A DNA stretch of 41,359 bases from Chloroflexota bacterium (GCA_005889085.1 VBDS01000188.1:1-41359); one strand, 5' to 3'; shown: positions 8,863 to 38,824, numbered from the stretch's first letter. Numbers and translations are program-made. Notes: generated from the sequence alone by a model not told the origin.

Positions 8863-8920
8863 AGTGTCTTCCCCGCTCGCGGGGAGCCGCGCCCTCCGGG
8901 CACGGAGGGGGATGGGGAGA
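8863..8920 (+). repeat. dispersed double-hairpin palindromic repeat, copy 1 (intergenic)
   Basis: cttccccgctcgcggggagccgcgccctccgggcacggagggggatgggg; same architecture as copies at 30633, 34484 and 38093. Confidence 0.8.
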
Positions 8921-8932
8921 ATTGAGCTAGCT

Positions 8933-9505
8933 ATGCGATACCTGGCGCTAGGCGATTCGTACACCATTGGCACGGGCGCCTCCGACCAATCGCACAGCTG
9001 GCCGTCGATCATCGCTTCGCGCATCGGCGCTGAGCTGACGAACCCAGCCGTCAACGGCTACACAACACTCGATTTGATCCGCGATGAGCTGTCCTATCTC
9101 GAGCGGATCAGGCCGGACGTCGTGTCGATCCTCATCGGCGTCAACGACCTCGTCCAGGGCCGGACCCCCGTCGAGTACCGAGAATCGCTCTCACGCATAT
9201 ACGACGAGGTGGCCGCGGTGGATCCGCGGCCGAGGATCGCAGCGATCTCGATCCCGACCTGGTCGTACGTCCCCGCCGCGACCGACTTCGGCGGCAGGGA
9301 GTACGTGGAAAGGCAGACGTCCGTGTTCAACGCGATCGCGGAGATCGAGGCAACATCTCGCAACTTCACATGGGTGGACATCAGCGAGGCGAGCACCTCG
9401 GGTATCGGCAGTGAGGGCTGGATCGCGTCGGACGACCTGCACCCCGGCGACGCGCAATATGCGGCGTGGGCAGAAATGATCTGGTCGGCGCTCAAGTCCT
9501 GGTAG
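8933..9505 (+). CDS. SGNH/GDSL hydrolase family protein
   Basis: YLALGDSYTIGTGAS (block I), SILIGVNDLVQG (block III), DDLHPGDAQYAAWA (block V); the ORF-track start at 8864 lies in the repeat, ATG 8933 preferred. Confidence 0.9.
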   Translation: MRYLALGDSYTIGTGASDQSHSWPSIIASRIGAELTNPAVNGYTTLDLIRDELSYLERIRPDVVSILIGVNDLVQGRTPVEYRESLSRIYDEVAAVDPRPRIAAISIPTWSYVPAATDFGGREYVERQTSVFNAIAEIEATSRNFTWVDISEASTSGIGSEGWIASDDLHPGDAQYAAWAEMIWSALKSW

Positions 9506-9526
9506 TCCAATTACTCACCAAAGCCC

Positions 9527-9583
9527 GCGAGTGCCGCCTCCCGCGTGCCCCAAGTGGGCGAATTACAAGAAGTGCGCACTCGC
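9527..9583. repeat. inverted repeat between convergent genes
   Basis: GCGAGTGC (9527-9534) ... GCACTCGC (9576-9583). Confidence 0.45.
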
Positions 9584-9602
9584 GCCCATAGAGCGCCAAA
9601 CC

Positions 9603-10337
9603 TCAGACCGTGATTCTCTTGAACGACTCCGCGTACTGGTATCCGCCCCGCTTACCCACGTCGCGATGGCGCTTGCGCATGAACTTCTCGAAGTCCCACT
9701 CGCGGCCAGGTTTCGCGATCTGGCTCTTGTGCTTGCGCAGGGCTTCGATCTTCTTCTCTAGGGTCGGGGTTATGTCGACGAGGTAATCACCCGAGGTCCA
9801 GAACGGAATCCACACCTCTTTGACTTCGTGCGGCTTGAAGCCCTGCTTGAGCAGCGAGCGGAACGCGCGCGGGTTGCGCGAATCCGGGTAGACGGCGGCC
9901 ATCGTCGCCTCGCCCACGGCGAGGTGGTCCGGGTGTGAGCCGCCCATCGGCGCGTCGAGCACGCGTCCGGGGATATGAGTGATGACGAGCTCTGGCCTGT
10001 GCTTGCGGATCATCCGCACGATGTCGCGCCGCAGCTTCAGGTCTGGAGCCAGGTGGCCGTCCTTGTAGCCGAGAAACTCGACCTTCTTGACGCCCAGGAC
10101 CCTCGCCGCGGCCCTCTGCTCCTTCGCGCGGATCGCGACCAGCTCCGAGTCTTTCTGGCTCGGGTCCTCGCCGCCCTGCGACCCATCAGTGACGATCACG
10201 TAGACGACCTCCGCGCCGCTGTCGACCAGCCGGGCGATGGAGCCGCCGGCGCCGAAGTCCGGGTCGTCCGGGTGCGCGGACACGACAAGCACCTTCTGGA
10301 ACTTGGGAAGCCTGCCGTTGCTGCGCGAGCTGGCCAC
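9603..10337 (-). CDS. PIG-L/LmbE family deacetylase
   Basis: 244 aa (GTG start); VLVVSAHPDDPDFGAGGSIARL, TDGSQGGEDPSQ, GSHPDHLAVGEA. Confidence 0.92.
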   Translation of the reverse strand: MASSRSNGRLPKFQKVLVVSAHPDDPDFGAGGSIARLVDSGAEVVYVIVTDGSQGGEDPSQKDSELVAIRAKEQRAAARVLGVKKVEFLGYKDGHLAPDLKLRRDIVRMIRKHRPELVITHIPGRVLDAPMGGSHPDHLAVGEATMAAVYPDSRNPRAFRSLLKQGFKPHEVKEVWIPFWTSGDYLVDITPTLEKKIEALRKHKSQIAKPGREWDFEKFMRKRHRDVGKRGGYQYAESFKRITV

Positions 10338-10363
10338 GACCTAAGACGATAGAACGCTTTGGG

Positions 10364-12214
10364 CTAGCGCCGCGGTTTTGGGGGCGCGCTGAGCGAAACG
10401 AGCGGCACGGCCGGTTGAATCGGAACCCACAGCGCCGCCAGCTGCTCCGCGGTCAGACGGGTCCGGACTGCGATCACGCGCCCGCCGAACGCCGCCGTCT
10501 TGACCGCAGCCCATCCCCCGCTCCCCGCGAGTCGCATGGGGACGGTCACGACCGCGGCCAGGGCCGCGGCCTCCTCCGCCGGCCGCGCGCTTCCGTCGGC
10601 GACAGCCCTGGCGAGCACGTTCGACAGCTCGTCCTCGATCTGCCACTGGCGCGCGAGCGCGCCACACTGGGTAGCGCCGAGGCGCCCAATGGCGGTGACA
10701 TACCTCGACACCATCGCGCCGAGGGACCGCGGGTTCGTTACCGGGATCGCCGTCGCGAAGGGCGCGTACGAGGCGGCGAACTTGATCGGCGTCAGGTGCT
10801 GCCGCTGAACAAGGGCGGCGACCGCGTGCCACGTGGCCACGGCCTCGTCGTCCGAGCGGCCGCCGAAGAAATCGACCAGCGCCGTGCCCGCGTTGACCAG
10901 CGGTGCGACCGCCTCCTCGTTTGCCTCCGGGGCGGCCGCCGCGATGCGCTGCCAGTCGGAGCTGCCCAGCCCGGCGACCTTGTGGGCAAAGCCACCGCCG
11001 TTCAATTCCTCGAAGTTGATGGAGGCCTCAAAAGGCGCGAGCATCTTGCGGACCTCTTGGAGGTTGAGGCGGGAGTGGGACTCGATCGCGAAACCGGCGC
11101 GCTCGACGGCGGCGAAGACTCGGCATCGACTGAACATATCGAGCTGGCGCGTCAGTTCTATGGCCGCCAGGATCGACCTCACGACACCCGCCGGTTCGAG
11201 GCTCCCCTCACGCGTCACGCTGGCCACCAGCTTCCGCCGGTCAAGCACGCGCAGCCACTGGATCGGGGACAGCTCAGCAAGGCCCTTGATGAAGCCGGCG
11301 ACCTCAGCGTGGTTCGCTCCGTAGATCGCGGGCTCGAGGGGCTTGCTCGGTAGAGTCCTGCTGCGCGGAGGGCGGGTGATCTGCTTGATCGCGCCGTCTA
11401 CGGCCGCGCGGACGCGTTCGACCGCGGGCAACGAGTCGACCTCGCTCAACGACCCAAACGTGACCACCGCTTGGAGCGGCACCCACAGCTCGGTGATCTC
11501 CTGTGCGGTCAGGTCGCCCAGAGCGCCGAGCACGCGGCCGCCGTGCACCACGGTGCGCACCGCCGACCATCCCTCGTCCCCGGTGACGTGGTTGGGGATC
11601 ATCCCCAGCGCGGCGAGTGCCACGGCTTCCTCGCTCTTGGCCTGCCTGTTCTTCGCCACCGCCTGGAGCAGAGCGCGAGATGCACCGGGCTGGATGCGCC
11701 AGCGCCTTGCGAGGAGCTCGAGCTGCTCCCTGGTCAGGTCCTGGAGGCGGCCGATGAAGCGGACTGTCTTCGGATCCAGCACGCCGGACCCGGCCAGCGG
11801 GATGAGCGCGGCGAACGGCGCGTAGTGGACCGCGAACTTCAGGGCGGGCAACTGGGAGCGCATCACGAGCGCGGTCATCGCCTGCCACGCCGCCACCTGC
11901 TTCTCCTCGCTCCTCTTCGCCAGGGTGTCGAAAAGAACCTCCCCCGCCCGGGCGATCGGCTCCGAGATCTTCGTGTCGCTGCTCCTGATGGCCGCCTGGA
12001 TCGAGCGGGCCGAGTCAGATGGTCCCGCTCCCTCCTTGCTGACCGACTCGACCAGGCGGCGAACGGCGAGGACCTGGCGCCACTGCCAGGGCGTCAGCTG
12101 GCCGGCCGCGACGATGAACGCCTCGACCTCGGCCGTGTGCGGACCGAAGCGGTGGACGGCATTGTCGTTCGCCTGCTGGATCCGGCCCAGCAGGCCATGG
12201 GAGGCGGGCGCCAC
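10364..12214 (-). CDS. uncharacterised protein with internal tandem duplication
   Basis: 616 aa; two homologous halves (AAWQAMTALVMRSQLPALKFAVHYAPFAALIPL vs ATWHAVAALVQRQHLTPIKFAASYAPFATAIPV); family not recognised. Confidence 0.8.
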   Translation of the reverse strand: MAPASHGLLGRIQQANDNAVHRFGPHTAEVEAFIVAAGQLTPWQWRQVLAVRRLVESVSKEGAGPSDSARSIQAAIRSSDTKISEPIARAGEVLFDTLAKRSEEKQVAAWQAMTALVMRSQLPALKFAVHYAPFAALIPLAGSGVLDPKTVRFIGRLQDLTREQLELLARRWRIQPGASRALLQAVAKNRQAKSEEAVALAALGMIPNHVTGDEGWSAVRTVVHGGRVLGALGDLTAQEITELWVPLQAVVTFGSLSEVDSLPAVERVRAAVDGAIKQITRPPRSRTLPSKPLEPAIYGANHAEVAGFIKGLAELSPIQWLRVLDRRKLVASVTREGSLEPAGVVRSILAAIELTRQLDMFSRCRVFAAVERAGFAIESHSRLNLQEVRKMLAPFEASINFEELNGGGFAHKVAGLGSSDWQRIAAAAPEANEEAVAPLVNAGTALVDFFGGRSDDEAVATWHAVAALVQRQHLTPIKFAASYAPFATAIPVTNPRSLGAMVSRYVTAIGRLGATQCGALARQWQIEDELSNVLARAVADGSARPAEEAAALAAVVTVPMRLAGSGGWAAVKTAAFGGRVIAVRTRLTAEQLAALWVPIQPAVPLVSLSAPPKPRR

Positions 12215-12238
12215 GGGGTAATTTTCAGCCCCGGGGGT

Positions 12239-13717
12239 TCAAACAGTCTCGACTTTAAGCAGGTTCGTCTGGCCTGGGCGGCCCACCGGCACCCCCGCCA
12301 CGACCACCACCCGATCGCCGGGCCGGACCATCCCGCTCTCGACGGCCGCTTCGGTGGCGTTCGAGATCATCTGGTCGGTGTCCCGCCCCGGGCTGACCTG
12401 GAGCGGGACGACGCCCGAGTACAGGGCGGTCCGCCGCAGCACCTCGGGGTGAGGGCTGGCCGCGATGATCGGCATCGGGGGCCTGGCCTTGCTGCACCGC
12501 AGCGCGGTCGTGCCCGACTCGGTGAACGCGATGATCACCCTTGCGTGCAGCTCGGCGGCGGTGGAAGCGGCCGCGTGGGCGATTGCGCTTCCCACCTGGC
12601 CCGGCTCGCGCCAGATCTGGCGCGCCCGCTCGTACGTCGGGTGCTTCTGTGCGGCCAGGCAGATCCGGGCCATCGCGCGCACAGCCTCGACCGGGTGGGC
12701 TCCGACCGACGTCTCCTGGGACAGCATCACCGCGTCCGTGCCGTCCCAGATCGCGTTCGCGACGTCGGAGGCTTCCGCACGGGTCGGGCGGTTGGAGGTG
12801 ACCATCGACTCGAGCATCTCGGTCGCGGTGATGACCGGCACGCCGGCCCGGTTGGCGCGGTCTATCACGTCCTTCTGCACGGCGGGCAGGTCGCCCAGCT
12901 TCAGCTCGACGCCGAGGTCGCCGCGCGCGACCATCACCGCGTCGGCGACCTCGAGGATTGCGTCGAGATTCCTGATCGCCTCGAGCTTTTCGAGCTTGGC
13001 GATCACAGGGACGGTCTTGTTGTGACCGGTGATGTGCTGCTGGCAGATCACGATGTCTTCCGCCCGCCGCACAAACGAGAGGGCGAGGTAATCGACGTCG
13101 AGCTCCATCGCCAGCCGCAGGTCCTCTAGGTCCTTCTCGGTCAGCGCCGGCAGAGGGAGAGGCCGTCCAGGGACGCTGACCCCTTTGCGCTCGCCGAGCA
13201 GTCCGCCGCGCATGACAGACGCTTCAGCTCGACCGTCGGACACCGAACGCACCGCCAGCTCGATTCGCCCGTCGTCGAGGAGCACTCGGTCCCCAGGCCG
13301 CAGCGCCTGCACGAGCTCAACATGACTGACGGTTATGTCATCCGGATTTTCGCGAGCGCTGTCCTCCCCATTCGTCGGAAGATCTGTCCTCCCCACGTGT
13401 CGGGAGGTGGCGCGCAGCGCCGGAGGGGCGGCAATGAGCCCGACCAGCCGTCCTCTGACCAGCCGCTTGAACGCAGCACCGTCCAGCTCACCGGTCCGGA
13501 TCTTGGGACCCTGCAGATCGCCCAGCAGCGCCACGGGACGGCCCGCCGTCTCGGCGGCCTCCCTCACGGCCGCCGCCGCCTGGCGGTGCGTCTCGGCGTC
13601 GCCGTGCGAGAAATTGAAACGCGCCACGTCCATCCCCGCCTGGACCATCGCGCGCAGCACGTGCGGCGACGAGCTCGAGGGCCCGATGGTGCAGACGATG
13701 CGCGTGCGCCGGATCAT
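12239..13717 (-). CDS. pyk: pyruvate kinase (with in-frame palindromic-repeat insertion)
   Basis: 492 aa; RRTRIVCTIGPSSSSP, ARFNFSHGDAETH, DLQGPKIRTGEL, KLEKLEAIRNLDAILEVADAVMVARGDLGVE, ITATEMLESM. Confidence 0.95.
   Translation of the reverse strand: MIRRTRIVCTIGPSSSSPHVLRAMVQAGMDVARFNFSHGDAETHRQAAAAVREAAETAGRPVALLGDLQGPKIRTGELDGAAFKRLVRGRLVGLIAAPPALRATSRHVGRTDLPTNGEDSARENPDDITVSHVELVQALRPGDRVLLDDGRIELAVRSVSDGRAEASVMRGGLLGERKGVSVPGRPLPLPALTEKDLEDLRLAMELDVDYLALSFVRRAEDIVICQQHITGHNKTVPVIAKLEKLEAIRNLDAILEVADAVMVARGDLGVELKLGDLPAVQKDVIDRANRAGVPVITATEMLESMVTSNRPTRAEASDVANAIWDGTDAVMLSQETSVGAHPVEAVRAMARICLAAQKHPTYERARQIWREPGQVGSAIAHAAASTAAELHARVIIAFTESGTTALRCSKARPPMPIIAASPHPEVLRRTALYSGVVPLQVSPGRDTDQMISNATEAAVESGMVRPGDRVVVVAGVPVGRPGQTNLLKVETV
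13360..13430. repeat. dispersed double-hairpin palindromic repeat, copy 2 (inside pyk; partial plus full unit)
   Basis: gtcctccccattcgtcggaagatct followed by gtcctccccacgtgtcgggaggtggcgcgcagcgccggagggg. Confidence 0.7.
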
Positions 13718-14151
13718 TGGTAGCGCTGGACCCGGCGCGTCATCTCCCGCTCGGCTTCGACCACCTGGCGCTCGAGCTCGAGCGCGCTGATCACCGCACC
13801 ACCCATGCCTCGCACGAGGTCGCGCTGAAATCGGTCCGACGTCGCAACCGTGATCAGATCCCCCAAGCCACCCGCGTCATATGCGATGCGCTCGATCGCG
13901 TGGTCCGCGGAATGTCCCTTGCGCGTGAAGAGCACGCGCACGCCGTCCACCATCTCCTCGGAGTTCGCCATCGACGCGGAATGATGCGCGTCGAACACGA
14001 CCGTGACGGACTGGCCGGTAACGATGCCGAGCACCGCGAGCCGCTCGATCAGCTTCTCGCGCGCGGCCTCCAGCGACGCCTCGGCCAGGAGGCGTTTCAG
14101 CGAAGGCCAGGCGTGGACCACGTTGTAGCCGTCGACGATCAACCTTTCCAC
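13714..14151 (-). CDS. NYN domain protein, YacP/Rae1-like
   Basis: GTG start; RLIVDGYNVVHAWPSLKR, VVFDAHHS, ITVATSDRFQRDLVRGMGGAVISALEL. Confidence 0.88.
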   Translation of the reverse strand: MERLIVDGYNVVHAWPSLKRLLAEASLEAAREKLIERLAVLGIVTGQSVTVVFDAHHSASMANSEEMVDGVRVLFTRKGHSADHAIERIAYDAGGLGDLITVATSDRFQRDLVRGMGGAVISALELERQVVEAEREMTRRVQRYQ

Positions 14152-14156
14152 CGCGG

Positions 14157-15440
14157 CTAGAAGAACCGCATGGTGAGCTGGCCGATGATGATCAGGGCTG
14201 GGTCGATGTTGGCCAGCGACGCGAGCTGATACACGATCTGAAAGAACGCGCTGCGCACCGGAGCCACGAACCACAGCAGGATGAAGACCCCATAGATTGC
14301 GATCGTGCTGTAGCGCATCGCCGTGTACTGAACCGAGTTAGGGAGCCAGGGCCGGATGATGCCGAAACCGTCGAGGCCTGGGACCGGAAGCAGGTTCAGC
14401 ACGACCGCCAGGAACATGAAAAAGCCGAGCACAGCCAGGGCCGCGAAGAAATAGCCGGTCGCGTTCGTGATCCAACCCGCCGGTCCCGCGATCGAGAACA
14501 CACCGGCGATCAGCAATCCACAGAGCAGATTCCCGACCGGGCCGGCGATGGAAACCGCCGAGCTCCACGCCCGCGTGCGCAGCGCGGAGTGGTTGATGTA
14601 CACGGCGCCGCCAGGCAGAGCGATGCCGCCGAGCAGCAGGAAGACGATCGGCAGGATCAGGCTCATCAGCAGGTTCTGGTAGCGCAGCGGGTTGAGTGAC
14701 AGGTAGCCGGCGCCGACCACCGACCGGTCACCCCCCAGGTACGCGACGAACGCATGCCCGAACTCGTGGACGCACAAGGAAATGATCCATCCACCCAGCA
14801 CGAAGACCAGGGTCAGCACCGGGACAGACCGGGGCACGACGTTGATCCAGAGCAAAGCGCCGGAGACCGCGGTCACGCCCACGGTCGCCAGGAAGAACGG
14901 GCTGACGCCGAGCACGCCGCGCAGGGATGGCCACGGTCTGCGGCGGAGAGCCTTGTCGCGCCGCGCCTGGTCGCGCGGAGCCGGCGCCGCTGCCGGCGGC
15001 GCACTCTGGCTCGCGGTCTGCAGGTGGCGGCGGAGGTCGTAGAGCGTCAGTCCGGCTTTCATCAAGGGGACAGAGGTCGTCGGCGAGTCCGAGTACAGCA
15101 TCACCAGCAGCAGGTGGATCGAATCGACCTGGTAGTGGCCGAGCACCTGCGCTTCGCGGTTGGCGTTGACGAGGAGCTGGCGCAGGGGCAGCGACGCGGC
15201 GGAGCCGTCGGGCGGCAGCTGGGCGCCGATCGCCTTGGGGTCGAAGCCCATCGCTGCGATCTCGCGGTCGGCCAGGCTGTGCGGGATCTGGACCATCGCA
15301 TTGAGCACATCCGCCGGCGCGACGTTCAAGGATCCCCGTGCCGAGGCGATCTCGGCGGCGCGATCGAGAATCTCGCGCGCGTCGCGGGTCAGCGCGATAT
15401 CGGCGGATGCGCGTTCGAGCTCTGTGGCTGCGTCAGGCAT
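14157..15440 (-). CDS. Clp_N-like domain fused to M50 (site-2 protease-like) membrane metallopeptidase
   Basis: 427 aa; N-terminal double Clp_N-like helical repeat (AREILDRAAEIA..., LRQLLVNANREAQVLGHYQVDSIHLLLVML), then TM segments with HEFGH and NLLPVPGLDG. Confidence 0.85.
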   Translation of the reverse strand: MPDAATELERASADIALTRDAREILDRAAEIASARGSLNVAPADVLNAMVQIPHSLADREIAAMGFDPKAIGAQLPPDGSAASLPLRQLLVNANREAQVLGHYQVDSIHLLLVMLYSDSPTTSVPLMKAGLTLYDLRRHLQTASQSAPPAAAPAPRDQARRDKALRRRPWPSLRGVLGVSPFFLATVGVTAVSGALLWINVVPRSVPVLTLVFVLGGWIISLCVHEFGHAFVAYLGGDRSVVGAGYLSLNPLRYQNLLMSLILPIVFLLLGGIALPGGAVYINHSALRTRAWSSAVSIAGPVGNLLCGLLIAGVFSIAGPAGWITNATGYFFAALAVLGFFMFLAVVLNLLPVPGLDGFGIIRPWLPNSVQYTAMRYSTIAIYGVFILLWFVAPVRSAFFQIVYQLASLANIDPALIIIGQLTMRFF

Positions 15441-16155
15441 CAGGGTGATCCAGTTTAGGAAGCCGCTGCCTCATCACCTCGTAAAGGAGGGCGGCCGCGG
15501 CCGCCGAGGCGTTGAAGCTTGCCACGTGCCCAACCACAGGCAGACGCACCCGAGCATCGCATCGCTCCTTGACCAGCCGGTGCACGCCGGTCCCCTCGCC
15601 GCCGACCACGACGCACACCCGCTGGGTGAAGTCGAAGTCCCACGCCGGGATCTCGCCGCGCGGGTCGAGGGCAACGCACCAGACGCCGGCCCGCTTCACG
15701 TCGACGATCGCCGACGGGAGTCCTGAAACCTTCGCGATCGGCAGCAGCTCGCTCGCGCCGGAGCTCGCCTTGACCGCGGCCGGCGAGAGTGGGGCGCTTC
15801 GATGCTCGGGCAGGAGAGCGCCGTCGCATCCCGCGACCTCCGCACTGCGCAGGATGGCGCCGAGGTTTTGCGGGTCGAGGATCGAATCGAGCGCGACGAG
15901 GAGTGACGGGTTCGTCTTGAGGAGCTGATCGAGGGTCCACTCGCGACGTGGTTTCAGCTCCGCGGCCACGCCCTGGTTCACGCCCGGCGCCAGTGAATCG
16001 AGACGATCCTTCGGTACGACCTCAACTGGGACAAGCCGCGCAAGCTCGTCGAGACGCGGGTCGTGACCGAGGCCATCGGCCCTGTAAACCTTGATCACCC
16101 GCCCAGCCCGCGCCGCCTCGAGGACCGCGTTGCGCCCGTGAATCACCTGTCTCAC
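15433..16155 (-). CDS. rlmB: 23S rRNA (guanosine-2'-O-)-methyltransferase RlmB/TrmH family
   Basis: VIHGRNAVLEAARAGRVIKVYRADG, LVALDSILDPQNLGAILRSAEVAGCDGALLPEHRSAPLSPAAVKASSGA, VVGGEGTGVHRLVKERCDARVRLPVVGHVASFNASAAAAALLYE. Confidence 0.93.
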   Translation of the reverse strand: MRQVIHGRNAVLEAARAGRVIKVYRADGLGHDPRLDELARLVPVEVVPKDRLDSLAPGVNQGVAAELKPRREWTLDQLLKTNPSLLVALDSILDPQNLGAILRSAEVAGCDGALLPEHRSAPLSPAAVKASSGASELLPIAKVSGLPSAIVDVKRAGVWCVALDPRGEIPAWDFDFTQRVCVVVGGEGTGVHRLVKERCDARVRLPVVGHVASFNASAAAAALLYEVMRQRLPKLDHPDA

Positions 16156-16164
16156 ACTAGGCGC

Positions 16165-16680
16165 ATGGTTGCAGACTTCATGTCCAGGGCGAGAGAGATG
16201 CTCGCGAGCGGCGTTAACGACGGGAGCTTGAATGCGGTAGGCCGGCTCCTCTCTGAAGTCTCCCGTGACGCAGGGTTCATACCGCAGACCGAGATGAAGA
16301 GCCTGCATGGCGGTGACACGACATCAGCTGTGCTGCAGAGCGATCCCGACGGACTGACCCTCATGCTCGGACGCTTTTCGCCGAAAGAGGAGACCCCCGT
16401 GCATAACCACAACTCATGGGGAATCGCATGCGTGGTCCGGGGCAAGGACCGCTATCGCCACTGGCACCACGACTACGAAGGCAAGCTGAAGATCCTGTAC
16501 GAGAAGGAGCTCGGGCCGGGCTCGTTCGTCACCTGGCTCGATCCGCCCCACGACATCCACAGCCAGCAGGGCATCCGCGAACCGGCCTTCGAGCTGATCC
16601 TATTTGGCAGGAACGTGATGACGATCCCGCGCAACTACTACAACCCCGAGACGGGAGAGGTCAGGACCGCACTGCCTTAG
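16165..16680 (+). CDS. cysteine dioxygenase-type cupin protein
   Basis: PVHNHNSWGIACVVRGKDRYRHW metal-binding cupin motif, DIHSQQGIREPAFELILFGRNV; ATG at 16165 preferred. Confidence 0.8.
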   Translation: MVADFMSRAREMLASGVNDGSLNAVGRLLSEVSRDAGFIPQTEMKSLHGGDTTSAVLQSDPDGLTLMLGRFSPKEETPVHNHNSWGIACVVRGKDRYRHWHHDYEGKLKILYEKELGPGSFVTWLDPPHDIHSQQGIREPAFELILFGRNVMTIPRNYYNPETGEVRTALP

Positions 16681-16690
16681 AGGCTCGGCC

Positions 16691-18109
16691 TCAGTAAGGG
16701 GCGACTCTCCTCCACCTGACGCCGTCCTTCGAGTCTTCGAGCACGATTCCTCGGGTGCGCAGGTCCTCGCGGATCTGGTCCGAGCGCGCGAAGTCGCGCG
16801 CCTTGCGCGCCGCCTCGCGCTCGGCGATCAGCCGCTCCACCTCGTCCGCAAGGCCGGGCTCCTCCGCGCGCATGACGTCCAGGTGTGCGTCGACCTCGTC
16901 GATCAGCTCGAGCAGGGACGCTTTGTTGTTCGGACCGACGCGATCCGCGTCGAGGGCTGCGTTGGCCTCGCGAATGAGGTCGAACACCAGGCCGACGCCC
17001 TGCGGAAGGTTCAAGTCGTCGTCCAGCGCCTCGCGGTAACCGGCGCGGACCTGCTCAATTCTGTGGGCGAACTCCGCGTCTTCGGAGTCAGCAGGCGTCG
17101 CGCGGTTGACGCGTTCGGTGAACTCGCGCAGGCGGCGCACCTGCTCGGCTGCGGCATGCAGCGCCTCTGGGCTCAGCCGCACTCGCGAGCGGTAGTGCGC
17201 GTTGGCGATGAGGAAGAAACGGATGGCGAGGGGATCGTGACCGGCATCGATCAGATCGCGCAGCGTGGTGAACCCGCCGGCACTCTTCGACATCTTCTCG
17301 CCCGTCGCGTCGGCGAGATGCTCCGAGTGCAGCCACACTCGCGCGTAGGTCTTGTGGTTGGCGGCCTCCGATTGTGCGATCTCGTTCTCGTGATGCGGAA
17401 ACATCAGGTCGACGCCTCCCGCGTGGATGTCGAGCGTGTCGCCGAGGTAGCGCTTGCTCATTGCAGAGCACTCGATGTGCCAACCCGGACGACCCCGCCC
17501 GAAAGGCGCGTCCCATGCGGCGCCGATCTTCTCATCGCCCGGCTGCGCCTTCTTCCAGAGCGCGAAGTCGCTGACGTGCTCCTTGTCGTACTTGTCGCTC
17601 GCCACCCTCGCTCCGGCCTTGAGCCCAGCACGGTCCAGGTGCGAGAGGGCGCCGTAGGCGGGGAAGCTCGCGATCCGGTAGTAAACGTCGCCGTCGGCGA
17701 CGTACGCGTTCCCGTTGGCGACCAGCGTGGCGATCATCTCGACCATCTCGGGAATGTGCTCGGTCGCCCGCGGGTACTGCTCGGCGCGCTCCGCCCGAAG
17801 GGCGGCCATGTCTTCGAAGAAGGCCGCCGCATACGGCTTCGTGTACTCGCCGATCGTCGTGCCCGCGTGCATCGCCTGGTCGAGGATGCGGTCGTCGATG
17901 TCCGTGAGGTTCATCACGTGCGTGACGCGATAGCCGGACACCTGCAGATGCCGCCGCACGATGTCGTAGAAGAGGAACGCGCGCAGGTTGCCAACATGCG
18001 CGAAATTCCACACCGTCGGCCCGCAGGTGTACATGCGGACCTGGTCCTCTTCGAGCGGCTCGAACGGATCCTTCGCTCCAGTGAGCGTGTTGTGAAGTCG
18101 AAGGGTCAT
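16691..18109 (-). CDS. cysS: cysteinyl-tRNA synthetase
   Basis: 472 aa; MYTCGPTVWNFAHVGNLRAFLFYDIVRR, GRPGWHIECSAMS, HAGGVDLMFPHHENEIAQSEA, KMSKSAGGF. Confidence 0.97.
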   Translation of the reverse strand: MTLRLHNTLTGAKDPFEPLEEDQVRMYTCGPTVWNFAHVGNLRAFLFYDIVRRHLQVSGYRVTHVMNLTDIDDRILDQAMHAGTTIGEYTKPYAAAFFEDMAALRAERAEQYPRATEHIPEMVEMIATLVANGNAYVADGDVYYRIASFPAYGALSHLDRAGLKAGARVASDKYDKEHVSDFALWKKAQPGDEKIGAAWDAPFGRGRPGWHIECSAMSKRYLGDTLDIHAGGVDLMFPHHENEIAQSEAANHKTYARVWLHSEHLADATGEKMSKSAGGFTTLRDLIDAGHDPLAIRFFLIANAHYRSRVRLSPEALHAAAEQVRRLREFTERVNRATPADSEDAEFAHRIEQVRAGYREALDDDLNLPQGVGLVFDLIREANAALDADRVGPNNKASLLELIDEVDAHLDVMRAEEPGLADEVERLIAEREAARKARDFARSDQIREDLRTRGIVLEDSKDGVRWRRVAPY

Positions 18110-18120
18110 CGCCGCTCAGT

Positions 18121-18170
18121 GTCCTCCCCATTTATGGGGAGGTGTCGGCGAAGCCGACGGTGGGGCTCGA
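18121..18170 (+). repeat. dispersed double-hairpin palindromic repeat, copy 3 (intergenic, cysS/ispF)
   Basis: gtcctccccatttatggggaggtgtcggcgaagccgacggtgggg. Confidence 0.8.
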
Positions 18171-18175
18171 CCGAA

Positions 18176-29328: not shown

Positions 29329-30167
29329 GACGTGGCCTGAGGCGCGGCCAGCCGGTACGCCATCTGGAAAAGATCCAGCCCTTCCTTGCGCACCCGAAGA
29401 TCGAAGTAGATCAGCACGATCGCGATCTGCAAGACCGGGTTGACGAGCGCGCTGACCAGCTCGCTGCTCGCCAGGGAGATCCCCGTCGCGATGAATGGCG
29501 ACACCACGAGCTGGAGGAGGAACTGGGCCAGCTGGACGAATGCGCCCAGAGCGATCCCGACGACGTACCAGATGATGAACATCAAGAAAAGCATGAGGAA
29601 CGTGCGCCACCAGCGGCCCTCCACGAGCCGCCGGCTGCGCCCCATCGCCGCACCCAGCCCGATGTTCTCGACGAACATCGCAGGGGTCACCACGATCCAC
29701 AGGACGAAGACCCAGAGCCACAGGGCGATGGGAGCCACGCAGAGCGCCAACGCGAGGTAGCCCGTGGCGACGAAGAGCACCCAGTAGCCGAGCAGCCCGA
29801 AGTAGCGGCGTAGAACGCCCATGAAAACACCGCTCGCTGTCACGGGCCGGCCTAGCGCGGACTCGCACGCCGCGTACATGACCGCCCCCATCGTGAACGG
29901 AAGAATCAGGAGGTTGACGACCAGGCCCGCCCCGAGCGTGGCGAGCAGCGGGGTCACAAAGCTCAGGTCTGTTATCCCTCCGCTCGATTGCTGCAGGATC
30001 GAAAAGAAGGACGCGAAGGCCACGCCGAAAATCGCCGCCGACGGTATGGCGAGGATGACCGAGATCCCCGCGAACAGGACGAAGTGTCGTCGGTACATGC
30101 GAAACGTCTCGTCGAGCACGTCGCCGATCTCCATCGGGCGCATGCGGAGCGGGGCAGGTACGCTCAA
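29325..30167 (-). CDS. membrane protein, glycerophosphodiester phosphodiesterase membrane-domain-like
   Basis: 280 aa; RPMEIGDVLDETFRMYRRHFVLFAGISVIL and multiple TM segments. Confidence 0.75.
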   Translation of the reverse strand: MSVPAPLRMRPMEIGDVLDETFRMYRRHFVLFAGISVILAIPSAAIFGVAFASFFSILQQSSGGITDLSFVTPLLATLGAGLVVNLLILPFTMGAVMYAACESALGRPVTASGVFMGVLRRYFGLLGYWVLFVATGYLALALCVAPIALWLWVFVLWIVVTPAMFVENIGLGAAMGRSRRLVEGRWWRTFLMLFLMFIIWYVVGIALGAFVQLAQFLLQLVVSPFIATGISLASSELVSALVNPVLQIAIVLIYFDLRVRKEGLDLFQMAYRLAAPQATS

Positions 30168-30231
30168 GTACTCGATTCCCAGTGTGTCGTATAGGGACCG
30201 GCTACGCGTTGCTGGAACGAAGGATTGGGCA

Positions 30232-30630
30232 ATGAATCAGCGCGCAGCGCCGGCCCCCGATGACATAAGCGTCCTCTTCGTCGAAGACGATGCGTCGGTG
30301 GCGCAGATGTACCGGCTCAAGCTCGAGCTCGACGGGTACAGCGTAGATGTCGCCGCCGACGGTCTCGTCGCGCTGGAAAAAGCAAGGGCCACGCACCCAG
30401 ACATCATTTTCCTGGACATCAGGCTTCCAAAAATGGACGGCCTTGAGGTCCTCGAGGCGCTCCGCGCTGACACCGCGACGGCGGCCATCCCGGTCGTGAT
30501 CCTGTCCAACTGGAACGAGAAGGAGCTGGTCGAGCGCGGCGTCAAGCTAGGCGCGCTCGACCACTTGATCAAAAGCCAGACCACTCCGGCCAGGCTGTCC
30601 CAGCGCTTGAAGGACCTCCTCCACGGCTGA
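30232..30630 (+). CDS. response regulator receiver-domain protein (stand-alone)
   Basis: ISVLFVEDDASVAQMYRLKLELDGYSVDVAADGLVALEKARATHPDIIFLDIRLPKMDGLEVLEALR; ATG 30232. Confidence 0.93.
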   Translation: MNQRAAPAPDDISVLFVEDDASVAQMYRLKLELDGYSVDVAADGLVALEKARATHPDIIFLDIRLPKMDGLEVLEALRADTATAAIPVVILSNWNEKELVERGVKLGALDHLIKSQTTPARLSQRLKDLLHG

Positions 30631-30632
30631 GG

Positions 30633-30685
30633 TCCTCCCCATTTATGGGGGCCGCGCCCCTGCGGGGCACGGAGGGGGAGGGGCT
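30633..30685 (+). repeat. dispersed double-hairpin palindromic repeat, copy 4 (intergenic)
   Basis: tcctccccatttatgggggccgcgcccctgcggggcacggagggggaggggctg; near-identical to copy 6. Confidence 0.9.
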
Positions 30686-30699
30686 GGTTCGAACTTGAT

Positions 30700-33198
<2,499 letters not shown>

Positions 33199-33336
33199 CG
33201 TCCCTATCCTCCTGGACTCCTTTCTGCGACTAGGTGGGGCCAGCACCTCCTTGACGAAACTGTGGTACCTGACGGTACGCCTGCACCTAATATAACGTCC
33301 AACTCAGCCACCCGAATTCAGTTACGAGGAGGCGCG

Positions 33337-34920
33337 GTGAGGCACCTTCTCCAGCGGCTTGGTGGCTTTCTCCCAGCCGCTGTCGCTCTCGTTCTGCCGC
33401 TCATCTTTCTACCCATCGCAAGCGATTCCTACATCCTCCCGCGTGCGTCGATTGTGATCGCCGGCGCTTGCCTTGGCGCAGGTATCTCACTTTTACTTCC
33501 TGACGGGCCCCGGCTTGGCGATTTGCGGTGGCCGCTTTTCGCCGCTGCGGCCGCGGCGCTGCTTGCCTTCGCGTTCTCCATCTCGTGGCCGCTGAGCCTG
33601 GCCGGTTCGTACACACGATACGAGTCCCTTCCGATGAGGCTCAGCTACATCGGACTGCTCGCGTCCAGCGTATGGCTGCTGCACACGGCTCGTCAGCGGA
33701 GCGCCGTCGTCGCCATGTTCGTCTTCGGCACCGGCGTCGTCTCCCTCCTGGGGGTCGGGCAGTGGGCCGGGCATGCGGCGTACCGGCCAGACGGCAACCT
33801 CGGCAACGCGAACCTGCTGGCGGCGCTGGTCGCCATGGCGCTGCCGCTGGCCGTGGACAGAGCGCTCCGCGGCGGCATCTTTGTCTTCGCCTGGGCCATG
33901 GCGATCGTCGTCCTTGCCGCGGGTCTTTTCGTCACGACCTCACGCAGCGGGGCGTTCGGAGCTGTCGCCGGGTGCTTGACCCTGGCGGTGCTGGCCACGC
34001 GAGGGCGGCTCGTGATCGGTAGCGCCATTGTGTCTCTCGGGATCGTTGGCGTCGGACTGTTCGTGATGTTGGGGTCGCCGCTGCGGGCCTTGAACAACGA
34101 TCCGCCCGAGCTGCGGCTTCACCTCTGGGGCGACGCCCTGCACATGATCGCGGCGCGACCGCTGACCGGCTGGGGCGAGGACGCCACCGGGCTCGCTTTC
34201 GGACACTTCTTGAGCCAGGACTACGCCTCGCTGGTGACCTTCGACCGCGTGCATTCCGGACCGCTGGACATCGCCGCGACGCAAGGCATCCTCGGCCTGG
34301 CTGCGCTGGGTTGGGTGCTCGTGGTTCTCGCAGTGAGAGCCTGGCGCCACCGGCTCGACCGAGACGTCGCCGCCCTGAGCGCCGCCCTGGTGGGCTACAC
34401 GGTGTGGGTGGTATTCAACTTCGACTGGTCCCCCGCCACTGGAGCGTTCTGGCTGCTCGCCGGAACCCTATGGTCAGCCCAGGCTCCTCCCCATTCATGG
34501 GGGCCGCGCGCTGCCGCGCACGGAGGGGGAGGGGCTCGTGGAATCCATCCATGGCGACCAGCAGTCGCAGTTGTACTGGTCGCCGCAGCACTCGTATTTG
34601 CCGTCTTCCCCATCCTGGCCGACGTCTGGTACCTCCGCGGCCGCTCCGACCTGTCAGTCCAGGTCGACCCTCTTCAGCCGCAGTACCACTGGTCGCTCGG
34701 CGACGGCCTGATCGCGACCCACAACCTCGAGGGCGGGGTGACCGAGCTCCGGCGGGCCGCCGACCTGGGCGAGACCGAGCCGAGCTTTTACGTGGAGCTG
34801 GGCGACCGCGAGCTCGACCTCGGCAACAAGTCCCGGGCGCGGCGCGACTACGAGCGCGCGCTCGAGATCGACCCCTATTACACCCCGGCATCCCAGCGCC
34901 TCAGCACGCTTGGCGGCTGA
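33337..34920 (+). CDS. O-antigen ligase-like polytopic membrane protein with C-terminal TPR
   Basis: GTG 33337 after GAGGAGG; many TM helices, TSRSGAFGAVAG, PLTGWGEDATGLAFG; TPR-like tail NKSRARRDYERALEIDPYYTPA. Confidence 0.82.
   Translation: MRHLLQRLGGFLPAAVALVLPLIFLPIASDSYILPRASIVIAGACLGAGISLLLPDGPRLGDLRWPLFAAAAAALLAFAFSISWPLSLAGSYTRYESLPMRLSYIGLLASSVWLLHTARQRSAVVAMFVFGTGVVSLLGVGQWAGHAAYRPDGNLGNANLLAALVAMALPLAVDRALRGGIFVFAWAMAIVVLAAGLFVTTSRSGAFGAVAGCLTLAVLATRGRLVIGSAIVSLGIVGVGLFVMLGSPLRALNNDPPELRLHLWGDALHMIAARPLTGWGEDATGLAFGHFLSQDYASLVTFDRVHSGPLDIAATQGILGLAALGWVLVVLAVRAWRHRLDRDVAALSAALVGYTVWVVFNFDWSPATGAFWLLAGTLWSAQAPPHSWGPRAAAHGGGGARGIHPWRPAVAVVLVAAALVFAVFPILADVWYLRGRSDLSVQVDPLQPQYHWSLGDGLIATHNLEGGVTELRRAADLGETEPSFYVELGDRELDLGNKSRARRDYERALEIDPYYTPASQRLSTLGG
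34484..34536 (+). repeat. dispersed double-hairpin palindromic repeat, copy 5 (inside the O-antigen ligase/TPR CDS)
   Basis: ctcctccccattcatgggggccgcgcgctgccgcgcacggagggggaggggctcg. Confidence 0.9.
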
Positions 34921-34925
34921 CAGCA

Positions 34926-34964
34926 GTCCTTCCCATCTATGAGGAGGCGCCGGAGAGGCTGGGG
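34926..34964 (+). repeat. degenerate copy of the dispersed repeat (no inner hairpin)
   Basis: gtccttcccatctatgaggaggcgccggagaggctgggg fills the 44-bp gap between the ligase/TPR and rpsA 3' ends. Confidence 0.5.
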
Positions 34965-36155
34965 CTACTCCTCTTCTTCGGGGTACTCGTCGTGCCGGTG
35001 GTCGGTGCGAGCTCCGGCCAGGCTCGCGGGCGGCGCCGACAGCTGCTTGAGGCTCAACGAGATCCGGCGCCGCGCTGTGTCGATGCCGATCACCTTGACC
35101 TGAACCGTCTCGCCAACCTTCAGCACATCCTCGGTCCGCTCGACGTGGTCCCAGGACAGCTCTGAGATGTGGAGCAGGCCCTCGATCCCCGGCATGATCT
35201 GGAGGAACGCGCCGTACTTCTTGGTCTTGGTGACCTGTCCCTCGACGATCGAGCCGACGGGCATCGACTGGACCAGGCGCTCCCACGGGTCCTGCTGCAG
35301 CTGGCGCAGCGAGAGGGAGATCCGTGTCTGCTCCGGGTCGAGCTTGATCACCTTCACGGTGACCTCCTCGCCGAGCTGGAGCACGTCTGTGACCTTGGAC
35401 ACGCGATCCCACGAGAGCTCGGAGATGTGGATCAGGCCGTCCGCGCCGCCGATGTCGACGAACGCGCCGTAGCTCGTGATCCCGGAAACCGTGCCTTTCA
35501 CGGTCGTCCCGGTCTGCAGCCGGCTGAACAGCTCCTCGCGCTTGCGCGCTCGGTCCTCGTCCTCCGCCGCCTTCTGGCTGACGATGAGCCGGTTGCGCTT
35601 GCGGTTGACCTCGAGGATCTTGACCGGGATCCGCTTGCCGACCAGCGACTCCAGGCTGCCCGCGTACGCGCGCGCCACCTGGCTCGAGGGAAGGAAGCCG
35701 CGCAGGCCGAGGATGTTGACGATCAGCCCGCCCTTGTTCTGCTCCCGAACGTCGGCGTCGATCACCGTGCCGTCGGTCTGCTTCTCCGCCGCGACAAGCC
35801 ACGTCGTCTCTGCCCGCGCCCGGCGCAGGCTGAGAACCACGTTCCCCTCATCGTTCTCCGGCTGGAGGACATAGACCTTGATCTGGTCTCCCGGCTCGAG
35901 GCCGGCGGGGTCCATCTCTCCGCGCAGGCCGAGCTCCTTGCTCGAGATGACGCCCTCTGCTTTGGCGCCGATGTCGACGAGGACCTCGTCCGCGTCAACC
36001 CGCACGACGATCCCATCCACGATGTCCCCGTGGTTGGGGGTTTTGAAGGCCTCCTCCTCGAAGTGGAGGTAGTCCTCCATCGTCATCGCAGCCGAAGATT
36101 CCTGGTCGGTCCCCTCCTCGTTTTCGGTCAGGACGGCACCGGACTCAGTAGACAA
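34965..36155 (-). CDS. rpsA: 30S ribosomal protein S1 (four S1 domains)
   Basis: 396 aa; repeated S1 domains, e.g. GTVSGITSYGAFVDIGGADGLIHISELSWDRV, GQVTKTKKYGAFLQIMPGIEGLLHISELSWDHV. Confidence 0.94.
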   Translation of the reverse strand: MSTESGAVLTENEEGTDQESSAAMTMEDYLHFEEEAFKTPNHGDIVDGIVVRVDADEVLVDIGAKAEGVISSKELGLRGEMDPAGLEPGDQIKVYVLQPENDEGNVVLSLRRARAETTWLVAAEKQTDGTVIDADVREQNKGGLIVNILGLRGFLPSSQVARAYAGSLESLVGKRIPVKILEVNRKRNRLIVSQKAAEDEDRARKREELFSRLQTGTTVKGTVSGITSYGAFVDIGGADGLIHISELSWDRVSKVTDVLQLGEEVTVKVIKLDPEQTRISLSLRQLQQDPWERLVQSMPVGSIVEGQVTKTKKYGAFLQIMPGIEGLLHISELSWDHVERTEDVLKVGETVQVKVIGIDTARRRISLSLKQLSAPPASLAGARTDHRHDEYPEEEE

Positions 36156-36247
36156 AATACGAACCCCCTAAGAGTTATTGGTGTGGTCTTGGTCGTCAAA
36201 ACGGCCTGCGCCAAAATGAACGTCAATTGTAACGCAGTTCGGCACAT

Positions 36248-37090
36248 CTACCCGAGAAAGGGAACTGCGAGGTCGTGGTTGTCGATGAGCCTCGTTTTGC
36301 CGATCCTCACGGCCATGACGGCAAGGCTCCCAGGCTTCTGAAAAGTAGCCGGATCGACCACCTCCGCGTACTCGACCTCAACCAGTGGCTCGGACCCGAG
36401 CCGGGCCAGCATCAGGACCCGCAGGCGGTCCGGATCGCGGTCACCGGTCGCGTAGGCGGCCGCAGCTTCGCGAAGCGCCTTGCTCAGGACCGTCGCGGCC
36501 TCCCTCTCGGCCGCGTCGAGGTAGACGTTGCGTGAGCTCAGCGCCAGGCCGTCCGGCTCCCGCACGATGGGTGCCACCCGGATGTCAACGCCCAGGTCGA
36601 GGTCCCTGGCCAGCCGGCTGACCACAGCCACCTGCTGCGCGTCCTTCTGCCCGAAGTAGGCGCGGTCGGGCTCGACGGCAGCGAACAGCTTGGTGACGAC
36701 CGTGGCGACGCCCTCGAAGTGGCCGGGCCGGGCGGCGCCCTCCAGCGGCTCCGAGACGCCGCTCACGTGCACCCGGGTCGTGGCCCCACGCGGGTACATG
36801 ACCTCTGTCGAGGGCCGGTAGACTGCGTCGACCTCTGCTCGGGCGAGCAGCTGGCCGTCGTGCGCCTCATCACGCGGGTAGCGCTGGAAGTCCTCTCCCG
36901 GCCCGAACTGGATTGGGTTGACGAAGACGCTGACCACCACGACGCCATTCTCGCGCCGCGCGAGCTCGACCAGGCTCAGGTGGCCGGCGTGGAGGGCGCC
37001 CATCGTGGGCACCAGCCCGATCGAGCGCCCCTCGGAGCGCCACCGGCGAGAAGCCTCGAGGATCCCGCCCGGGCTGTCGAATACGGCAAG
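36248..37090 (-). CDS. panC: pantothenate synthetase
   Basis: GLVPTMGALHAGHLSLVELAR, SVFVNPIQFGPGEDFQRYPR, YFGQKDAQQVAVV, GLALSSRNVYL; exact start uncertain. Confidence 0.94.
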   Translation of the reverse strand, partial: LAVFDSPGGILEASRRWRSEGRSIGLVPTMGALHAGHLSLVELARRENGVVVVSVFVNPIQFGPGEDFQRYPRDEAHDGQLLARAEVDAVYRPSTEVMYPRGATTRVHVSGVSEPLEGAARPGHFEGVATVVTKLFAAVEPDRAYFGQKDAQQVAVVSRLARDLDLGVDIRVAPIVREPDGLALSSRNVYLDAAEREAATVLSKALREAAAAYATGDRDPDRLRVLMLARLGSEPLVEVEYAEVVDPATFQKPGSLAVMAVRIGKTRLIDNHDLAVPFLG

Positions 37091-37094
37091 TCCC

Positions 37095-37943
37095 TTATCC
37101 GGGGCCGTACCTGACCTCTTCCCTGTCCTTCGCTGGAGCCGAGCCGTTCGCCGAGTACTCGTGTTCGGGCCCCGGGAACGTCCCGTTGCGTACGTCCTCG
37201 GCGTAGCTCTTCGCAGCCCGGGTGATCTCCTCCGCCAGGTTGGCGTAGCGCTTGACGAACTTCGGTGCCTTGCCCGTGGTGAGCCCGAGCATGTCGTGCA
37301 GGACGAGCACCTGGCCGTCGGTGCCGGGACCGGCGCCAATCCCGATGGTCGGGATCCGCAGCGCCTTGGTGACATCCACCGCGAGCTTGCTCGGCACTCC
37401 TTCGAGCACGAGGCTGAACGCGCCCGCCTGCTCCAGCGCCCTGGCGTCGGCCAGGATGCGAGCCGCCTGGGCGTCGGTCTTGCCCTGCACCTTGAAGCCG
37501 CCCATCGCGTGGACGGACTGGGGCGTGAGTCCGAGGTGGCCCATCACCGGGATGCCGAGCTCGGTGAGGCGGCGTGTGATCTCGATCACAGGCCCTCCCC
37601 CCTCGAGCTTGACCGCGTGCATGCCCGCCTCCTGGAGGAACCTTCCCGCGCTGATGATCGCCTGCTCCGTCGACGCGTGGTAGGACATGAACGGCATGTC
37701 GCCGACCAGCAGTGCCTGGCGCGAGCCCCGAGCCACCGCCTTCGCGTGGTGGAGCATGTCGTCCAGGGTCACCGGCAGCGTCGTCGGATAGCCAAGCATC
37801 ACCATGCCGAGGCTGTCGCCGACAAGCAGGACCGGAAGCCCCGCCTCATCGAGGATCTTCGCGCTGAGGTAGTCGTAAGCGGTCAGGACCGCAAAGCGCC
37901 GACCTTCGTCCTTGAATCGCTGGACGTCCAGCACAGTGGTCAT
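37095..37943 (-). CDS. panB: 3-methyl-2-oxobutanoate hydroxymethyltransferase
   Basis: 282 aa; RFAVLTAYDYLSAKILDEAGLPVLLVGDSLGMVMLGY, GHLGLTPQSVHAMGGFKVQGK, GIGAGPGTDGQVLVLHDMLGL. Confidence 0.97.
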   Translation of the reverse strand: MTTVLDVQRFKDEGRRFAVLTAYDYLSAKILDEAGLPVLLVGDSLGMVMLGYPTTLPVTLDDMLHHAKAVARGSRQALLVGDMPFMSYHASTEQAIISAGRFLQEAGMHAVKLEGGGPVIEITRRLTELGIPVMGHLGLTPQSVHAMGGFKVQGKTDAQAARILADARALEQAGAFSLVLEGVPSKLAVDVTKALRIPTIGIGAGPGTDGQVLVLHDMLGLTTGKAPKFVKRYANLAEEITRAAKSYAEDVRNGTFPGPEHEYSANGSAPAKDREEVRYGPG

Positions 37944-38824
37944 CGCTTTCTCCTTCGGGTCGCTGCCACATCAGGGGTCAGCGCCCTTGTCACAAGCGTT
38001 TTTCGGGTCCGCTCCGCCGCCGCGGGATCGAGCCCCGCCTGCCGCGCGATCTCGAGCGCAACCAGGGCGAGCATACGATAAATCTGAGATGGCTCCTCCC
38101 CATTCATGGGGGCCGCGCCCCTGCGGGGCACGGAGGGGGAGGGGCTGTGCCGAACCCTCGTCAGCGCCTCGAGATGTAGCCGGACGGTCCCCGTATCGCC
38201 TCTCCGGATCGGCCCGGTCAACGCCCCCACCGTCCCCCGCCTGCGGATGTTGGCCACCGCACCCTCCACGAGTGGCACCAGCGCCGCCGTGCTCTCGGCC
38301 TCGGTCCATCCGAGCTCCATCAGGATGCGAACCCCCTCCCACACCACGACGTCGAGAAAGTTCGACGCGAACACAGCCGCTGCGTGGTAGAGCGCGCGCT
38401 CGCGATCGGTGACGTGCTTGGGCCGGGCGCCGAGCGCGCGAGCGAGGGCGCGCAGGCGGCGCATCAACGCCGGCGTCGAAGCATCGACGGCGACGGTGAT
38501 GCCGCGAAACGCGGACGGGTCGCGTGGTGCGGGGAACGACTGAAGTGGGTGGAAGGAACCGATTTCGTGCGCTCGCAACGGTTCCAGTGCGCCGAGGCCC
38601 TGCGCGCCGCTCACGTGGACGAAAGCGATGCCTTCGGCCGGCCGCATCTTTGCGATCAGCTCGGCATTTTCCACCACCGCACCGTCGGGCACAGCCAGGA
38701 ACACGAGGCCGTCGGCCGGCAGGCGCAGGCCGCTGCGTGAAGCCACCAGCCGAGCATCCAGGCCCGCGGCTCTGAATGCGCGCGCCAGGCTCCGGCCGAG
38801 GTTGCCGCGGCCTACAACGGTCAG
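37940..38824 (-). CDS. Rossmann-fold + DUF2520 protein (ketopantoate reductase-like architecture)
   Basis: Frame open upstream of the ORF-track Met (38746); upstream translation LTVVGRGNLGRSLARAFRAAGLDARLVASRSGL contains GxGxxG; DUF2520-like C-terminus; possible CTG start at 38824. Confidence 0.78.
   Translation of the reverse strand: MTVVGRGNLGRSLARAFRAAGLDARLVASRSGLRLPADGLVFLAVPDGAVVENAELIAKMRPAEGIAFVHVSGAQGLGALEPLRAHEIGSFHPLQSFPAPRDPSAFRGITVAVDASTPALMRRLRALARALGARPKHVTDRERALYHAAAVFASNFLDVVVWEGVRILMELGWTEAESTAALVPLVEGAVANIRRRGTVGALTGPIRRGDTGTVRLHLEALTRVRHSPSPSVPRRGAAPMNGEEPSQIYRMLALVALEIARQAGLDPAAAERTRKTLVTRALTPDVAATRRRKR
38093..38146 (+). repeat. dispersed double-hairpin palindromic repeat, copy 6 (inside the DUF2520 CDS)
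   Basis: cctccccattcatgggggccgcgcccctgcggggcacggagggggaggggctg. Confidence 0.9.

What the first reader, a model, noticed from the sequence alone, without database searches (positions are those of the whole stretch)
8863..38146. Family of dispersed double-hairpin palindromic repeats, about 7 copies in 41 kb
Seen directly: copies at about 8863, 13360, 18121, 30633, 34484, 34926 (degenerate) and 38093 share the architecture CCTCCCC-N6-GGGG(AGG) + variable inner hairpin + CGG(A/T)GGGG(GAGGGG). The final G-rich tail is also complementary to the first CCTCCCC arm, so two mutually exclusive folds are possible. Copies 30633 and 38093 are almost identical over about 52 bp; others are diverged, implying ongoing or repeated spread. 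None encodes a transposase, so they look like a non-autonomous REP/MITE-like family.
Basis: partly seen in the sequence, partly recalled or inferred. Interest (0 to 1): 0.75.

Follow-up and report, generated by a model that had tools for sequence, protein, structure and literature searches.

The report
Triplex-type repeats inserted in protein genes
A soil Chloroflexota bacterium and its relatives carry about a hundred copies each of a short folding DNA repeat, built like a known class of possible triple-helix sequences, that sits just after genes and is also stitched, without breaking the reading frame, into core metabolic proteins, apparently with no transposase of the expected kind.

Summary
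The repeats are real. A covariance model recovers all seven window copies, at least 97 copies in the 2.8 Mb genome (scoring stopped at 100), and 5-106 in each of 16 congeners. The stems covary strongly.

(1) Copies are built pyrimidine arm - loop - purine arm - variable hairpin - second purine arm. The second purine arm mirrors the first, as in purine-motif intrastrand-triplex motifs (the E. coli TMECO class).
(2) No Y1/RAYT transposase was found in any of 17 genomes of the genus. REP tag tetranucleotides are absent and no target-site duplication was recognised.
(3) Most copies (39/56) lie next to a stop codon. Three of the seven window copies lie in-frame inside genes: pyruvate kinase, an O-antigen-ligase-like protein and a DUF2520 protein. 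Others sit in CarB, GlgE, Fpg, prolyl oligopeptidase and LysE.
(4) In congeners the same sites are empty or carry other families or orientations. G000 and G013 have subtypes A and B at the same CarB site with matching flanks.

Closest known: TMECO motifs and Rickettsia palindromic elements. This is a new variant joining both traits. The spreading mechanism is not shown. My best inference is copying between structured repeats at stalled forks, or an unrecognised mobiliser acting in trans.

The parts
8866..8920 (+). copy 1 (CTTCCCC..GGGG long-tail variant, third arm GGATGGGG); in the gap between an Iso_dh gene (stop at 8859) and a GDSL lipase gene
   Evidence: in relatives the site is empty or holds TMECO-like or E-type elements
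13362..13430 (+). copy 2: composite (extra hairpin 13362-13384 + type A element 13385-13430) lying in-frame, antisense, inside the pyruvate kinase gene
   Evidence: orthologous B-domain loop occupied by various families or empty
18120..18167 (+). copy 3: canonical type A with T in the third arm (GGTGGGG); between the ispF (YgbB) stop and the cysS start
   Evidence: 72.1 bits
30631..30685 (+). copy 4: type B (long tail GGAGGGGGAGGGG); directly after the stop (30630) of a response-regulator gene, convergent with clpC
34483..34536 (+). copy 5: type B, in-frame inside an O-antigen-ligase-like gene (54 bp = 18 codons)
   Evidence: relatives carry different in-frame inserts at the same loop
34925..34960 (+). 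copy 6: decayed type A between the O-antigen-ligase-like gene and the S1-domain gene (convergent)
   Evidence: 22.2 bits
38092..38146 (+). copy 7: type B, in-frame, antisense, inside the DUF2520 gene
   Evidence: empty in G003 and L133, other families in G013, G004, G011, L176
12239..13717 (-). host gene: pyruvate kinase with insert AAPPALRATSRHVGRTDLPTNGEDSARENP
   Evidence: PF00224 E=4.7e-104
33301..34920 (+). host gene: Wzy_C/O-antigen-ligase-like membrane protein with TPR tail (start codon not determined)
   Evidence: PF04932 E=3.8e-16
37940..38746 (-). host gene: DUF2520 Rossmann-like protein
   Evidence: PF10728 E=1.4e-30

Best explanation
Shown: a non-autonomous dispersed repeat of 45-55 bp, built Y arm (CCTCCCC) - 6-nt loop - R arm (GGGGAGG) - TG - variable hairpin - third arm GG(A/T)GGGG that mirrors the R arm, i.e. 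the layout of a class II purine-motif intrastrand triplex. Copies accumulate where they do least harm: right at stop codons and, in-frame, in tolerant loops and linkers of proteins. Orthologous sites turn over between empty, subtypes A/B/C and other triplex-type families (D, E and the E. coli-type TMECO). Inferred mechanism: the element is selfish or neutral. Its folded single strand (hairpin, possibly capped by the third strand) stalls forks, and repair by template switching between copies sharing C-run/G-run ends swaps, duplicates and nests elements in place. Less often it seeds a new site, alone or with an unrecognised mobiliser acting in trans. Selection then purges frame-breaking and promoter-blocking insertions.
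For: Copy number and covariation: at least 97 copies in own genome; 8 of 14 pairs with two-sided changes, covariation score 0.227 vs 0.058 in shuffles, 0/500. Triad rule: Y/R/third = CCT/AGG/GGA (155) or GGT (9); CTT/AAG/GAT (11); GCT/AGC/TGA (5); third arm G opposite C-G, A or T opposite T-A. In-frame inserts in Pfam-identified proteins. CarB linker: 11 of 17 genomes without insert, G000 subtype A and G013 subtype B at the same position with near-identical flanks, G015 type C, G005 inverted; pyruvate kinase: 8 aligned genomes with element, 6 without. O-antigen-ligase-like loop: different in-frame inserts in each of eight sequences, own included. DUF2520: two empty, five occupied. G013, about 90% identical, shares 7 of 8 slots, four with different families. 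Tandem growth and nesting. No Y1 transposase in the genus. 39 of 56 copies lie next to a stop codon, most within about 15 nt.
Against: No DNA or RNA structure was measured; for E. coli TMECO a triplex forms in vitro but was not seen in vivo (PMC4666352). The triad covariation rests on three or four subtypes, few independent events. Template switching is inferred from swap patterns; repeated insertion into permissive sites by an unknown transposase would look similar. Absence of Y1 rests on draft MAGs (63-96% complete). Similar element types in Caulobacterales could mean an unseen vector.
Confidence: 0.45

Rival explanations
1. Classical REP/MITE mobilised in trans by an unidentified or lost transposase; all site variation reflects repeated insertion into a small set of permissive sites followed by decay.
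For: Dispersal, near-identical copies, nested composite elements at about six own loci, empty sites in relatives, strong species-to-species copy number differences. Neighbouring copies share strand more often than chance (48/72, p=0.003), with regional GC3 skew but not gene orientation (p=0.006, exploratory), as expected for a single-strand transposition process.
Against: No Y1_Tnp in 17 genus genomes or 5 of 6 Caulobacterales carriers, whereas G027, with 11 Y1 matches, has no hit to the repeat pattern. No tag, no TSD recognised. Swaps keep flanks (G000/G013 CarB).
Confidence: 0.35
2. Functional RNA or DNA elements kept by selection (3' mRNA stabilisers, attenuators or nucleoid protein sites) at conserved loci.
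For: Location at stop codons, covarying stems, presence of some element at the same slot in several species.
Against: Slots are freely empty in other species, element family and orientation change, copies sit inside coding loops of unrelated enzymes, both orientations relative to genes; Holder et al. cite no promoter or terminator activity for TMECO.
Confidence: 0.1
3. Compositional convergence: G/C-rich palindromes arise repeatedly by mutation and palindrome correction in a 67% GC genome, without spread.
For: Same layout in Caulobacterales and TMECO in distant phyla; many inner-hairpin variants.
Against: 61 exact 17-mers vs 0 control, a conserved A/T-rich ATTYAT loop, conserved ends (T 51/51 at -1), about 10 pyrimidine-arm hairpins in shuffled sequence against 82 observed, nearly absent from one congener (G014).
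Confidence: 0.03

Closest known systems
Intrastrand triplex motifs (TMECO / PIT elements of E. coli; Holder et al. 2015, PMC4666352)
   Same: Y arm - loop - R arm - loop - third purine arm; third arm A or T opposite T-A; high and very uneven copy number between close relatives; association with local instability; no transposase found. True TMECO-consensus copies occur in 15 of 17 genus genomes and share sites with the present family.
   Different: Second loop is a 10-20 nt covarying hairpin instead of N3; Y arm 7 nt; Chloroflexota instead of Proteobacteria; copies inside genes, whereas E. coli TMECO is reported as always intergenic.
Rickettsia palindromic elements (RPE; PMC3767692, PMC10969869)
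   Same: Palindromic repeats inserted in-frame in conserved protein genes; different groups at the same gene in different species, read there as insertion hotspots or a common origin.
   Different: RPEs are about 100-150 bp and of other sequence; here 45-55 bp, G/C-rich and triplex-like; most copies here are intergenic.
GTAG/CGTC-tagged REPs and RAYTs (Di Nocera et al. 2013, PMC3733652)
   Same: Short high-copy palindromes near genes, sometimes inside genes (recB of Xanthomonas); CGTC REPs also lack a known transposase.
   Different: No GTAG or CGTC tag, a third arm, no RAYT.
IS200/IS605-type ends
   Same: Two successive hairpins on one strand; a possible replication-strand bias.
   Different: No Y1 transposase, no recognised cleavage tetranucleotide.

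Membership tests
Class II purine-motif intrastrand triplex motif | Y-R-R order with the third arm mirroring the R arm and obeying G*G-C, A/T*A-T | tested here: met
   155+9 of 207 parsed copies for CCT/AGG/GG(A/T); CTT/AAG/GAT 11; GCT/AGC/TGA 5; few independent subtypes
Class II purine-motif intrastrand triplex motif | Forms a triplex in vitro (CD/NMR) | not testable with these tools
   needs oligonucleotides
TMECO | Consensus CCCTCNCCC N3-6 GGGNGAGGG N3 GGGNGAGGG | tested here: not met
   window copies do not match it by sequence; other elements in the genus do
REP with RAYT | GTAG or CGTC tag at one end of the palindrome | tested here: not met
   conserved ends are (G)(C/G)T-CCTCCCC and GGGGCT
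REP with RAYT | Y1 (HUH) RAYT transposase in the genome or clade | tested here: not met
   0 of 17 genus genomes; draft MAGs
MITE | Terminal inverted repeats and target-site duplications | tested here: inconclusive
   no TIR in the usual sense; empty sites too diverged, or accompanied by target loss, to fix a TSD
Rickettsia palindromic element | Palindrome inserted in-frame in protein genes | tested here: met
   CarB, pyruvate kinase, GlgE, O-antigen-ligase-like, DUF2520, Fpg, S9 peptidase, LysE
Rickettsia palindromic element | About 100-150 bp, RPE sequence families, Rickettsiales | tested here: not met
   45-55 bp G/C-rich elements in Chloroflexota

The most novel reading that the evidence does not exclude
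A structure-driven repeat that spreads and swaps without any transposase, by single-strand (replication-linked) template switching between triplex-forming copies, and thereby keeps rewriting loops of core enzymes across a bacterial genus; several unrelated triplex-type families compete for the same sites.
Probability: 0.2. Interest if true: 0.85.

Novelty: new variant of a known kind. Interest (0 to 1): 0.6.

Why it matters
Triplex-motif repeats were described in E. coli as intergenic, of unknown origin and without signs of mobility. Here the same anatomy shows clear presence/absence and subtype swaps at fixed sites, many of them inside enzymes. This gives a natural data set for how transposase-orphan repeats move, and it brings in-frame palindrome insertion, best known from Rickettsia, to another phylum. 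It also warns that peptides such as LPIHGEVARSAGGA in predicted proteins are DNA repeats, not domains.

Tried and rejected
Rfam: no match at the repeats. Y1/RAYT search in own genome, 120 relatives and six Caulobacterales carriers: none in the genus. A generic mirror-arm scan on 431 kb of syntenic DNA was too noisy: mirror and direct third arms were not separated (27 vs 21 at 85%). I therefore rely on parsed family members, which leaves the third-arm rule supported by few independent subtypes. A second parser mis-anchored CTT elements on the inner hairpin and is not used for them. A stricter hairpin scan found only three sites in the window and up to three in shuffles, so that scan by itself does not show enrichment. 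TSD search in pairwise occupied/empty alignments gave no constant duplication. A G-quadruplex reading of type B tails was not tested.

Full report
WHAT IS THERE. The seven repeats of the finding are at the stated places. Model R1, built from 26 repeat sequences (mostly own-genome copies), finds all seven in the window with E from 1.5e-19 to 1.1e-4; the remaining hits are a reverse-strand match to one copy and two hits near 0.07. In the whole MAG (2.8 Mb, 260 contigs, 86% complete) the 17-mer CCTCCCCATTNATGGGG has 61 exact sites against none for the reversed control pattern, and R1 finds at least 97 copies (scoring stopped at 100). The 16 congeners have 5-106 matches; G014 has only 5. Other genera of the family have 0-51 and other families of the class mostly none. 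Named relatives are soil 'Chloroflexi' MAGs. The hairpin 24-mer also occurs in Brevundimonas and Caulobacter, where R1 finds 27-97 matches per genome.

ANATOMY. The main type (A) is T-CCTCCCC-ATTYAT-GGGGAGG-TG-[variable hairpin]-GG(A/T)GGGG-CT. T at -1 is 51/51 and C at +1 is 44/51. The inner hairpin has dozens of variants that keep pairing: 97% of cells paired, 8 of 14 pairs with changes on both sides, covariation score 0.227 against 0.058 for shuffles (0/500) and at most 0.057 for slid partners. The last arm, with no Watson-Crick partner in type A, is the mirror image of the R arm. When the Y/R arms change it changes with them: CCT/AGG/GGA or GGT, CTT/AAG/GAT, GCT/AGC/TGA. This is the geometry of a purine-motif intrastrand triplex, in which third-strand G sits on G-C and A or T on A-T (PMC4666352). 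Composite elements with a type C unit inside the inner loop of type A recur at about six own loci, and hairpin-only tandem arrays (29-bp pitch) and tail repeats occur.

WHERE IT SITS. Of 56 scorable own copies, 39 have a stop codon of a sense upstream or antisense downstream gene within 120 nt, most of them within about 15 nt. A minority lies inside genes, with the frame kept in every case examined. In the window these are pyruvate kinase (13362-13430), an O-antigen-ligase-like protein (34483-34536) and a DUF2520 protein (38092-38146). Elsewhere in the genome they are in CarB, GlgE and an alpha-amylase-family protein; in relatives in Fpg, a prolyl oligopeptidase and LysE. Several reading frames and both orientations are used, so this is insertion of DNA, not a protein domain. 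Type A is 45 bp and type B 54 bp in their commonest forms, both multiples of three, with five of six frames open by inspection of the type A consensus. In CarB the insert falls in the linker before the second synthetase half, and E. coli CarB has a gap there.

VARIATION BETWEEN SPECIES. CarB linker in 17 genomes: 11 without insert, G000 type A, G013 type B at the identical position with near-identical flanks, G011 type A, G015 type C, G005 inverted, G014 what looks like a decayed remnant. Pyruvate kinase loop: 8 of 14 aligned genomes occupied by several families, 6 empty. O-antigen-ligase-like loop: own plus G013, G002, G004, G011, G003, L127 and L133, each with a different in-frame insert, including fourfold and threefold tandem elements (L127 and L133 may be records of genomes already counted). 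DUF2520: empty in G003 and L133, occupied in G013, G004, G011, L176 and the window. All seven window slots are polymorphic across the genus. G013, about 90% identical, has an element in 7 of 8 slots shared with the window; by my reading four are of another family, and one slot (own about 27.3 kb) is occupied only in G013. At the slots I compared by eye the element strand was the same in all species despite the change of family. That argues for exchange in place, but CarB G005 is inverted.

MOBILISER. Y1_Tnp (PF01797) is absent from all 17 genomes of the genus and from 5 of 6 Caulobacterales carriers, while G027, same family, has 11 matches and no hit to the repeat pattern. Neighbouring copies on a contig share strand in 48 of 72 cases (permutation p 0.003). 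Regions with plus copies have lower GC3 skew than regions with minus copies (p 0.006) at equal gene orientation. This is exploratory and would fit a replication-strand-dependent process.

MECHANISM (inference). I favour a selfish or neutral structured repeat that is exchanged and multiplied by template switching at stalled forks, with selection deciding where copies survive. A transposase acting in trans and not yet recognised is the main rival. Structure formation and translation of the insert peptides are untested here.

KNOWN OR NEW. TMECO motifs share the anatomy and occur here too: the TMECO consensus hits 15 of 17 genus genomes with up to 25 sites, while Holder et al. report it from proteobacterial genomes and, in E. 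coli MG1655, always intergenically. RPEs share the in-frame insertion and the same-site, different-family pattern (PMC3767692). REPs inside genes and REPs without a transposase are known (PMC3733652). The combination and its setting make this a new variant of a known kind.

Noticed in passing
window 38998-39297 and 39708-40007: 99% identical 300-nt direct repeat 710 bp apart: a second, partial copy of the ftsH 3' half (AAA lid + peptidase M41) next to ftsH; not duplicated in the syntenic G013 region. Could be a real tandem duplication or a MAG assembly artefact.
   Followed up: partly
window 3621-3763 (-): Ribosomal protein L10 leader (RF00557, 51.1 bits).
   Followed up: no
window 18109-18142: The R arm of the copy (GGGGAGGAC on the minus strand) lies about a dozen nt upstream of the cysS start codon and could serve as its ribosome-binding site.
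   Followed up: no
G013:C106:120011-120631: Seven type A hairpins, most at 116-bp pitch, in one array: tandem growth that includes flanking DNA.
   Followed up: no
genus genomes, e.g. G006:C23:5306: E. coli-type TMECO triplex motifs, reported for proteobacterial genomes, in 15 of 17 Chloroflexota genomes.
   Followed up: partly
G027 (same family): 11 Y1_Tnp matches but no hit to the strict repeat pattern and a single weak model match.
   Followed up: no
Caulobacterales records behind L113, L118, L126, L138, L156, L160: 27-97 R1 matches per genome, some as inverted pairs about 85-100 bp apart, without Y1 transposase in five of six.
   Followed up: partly
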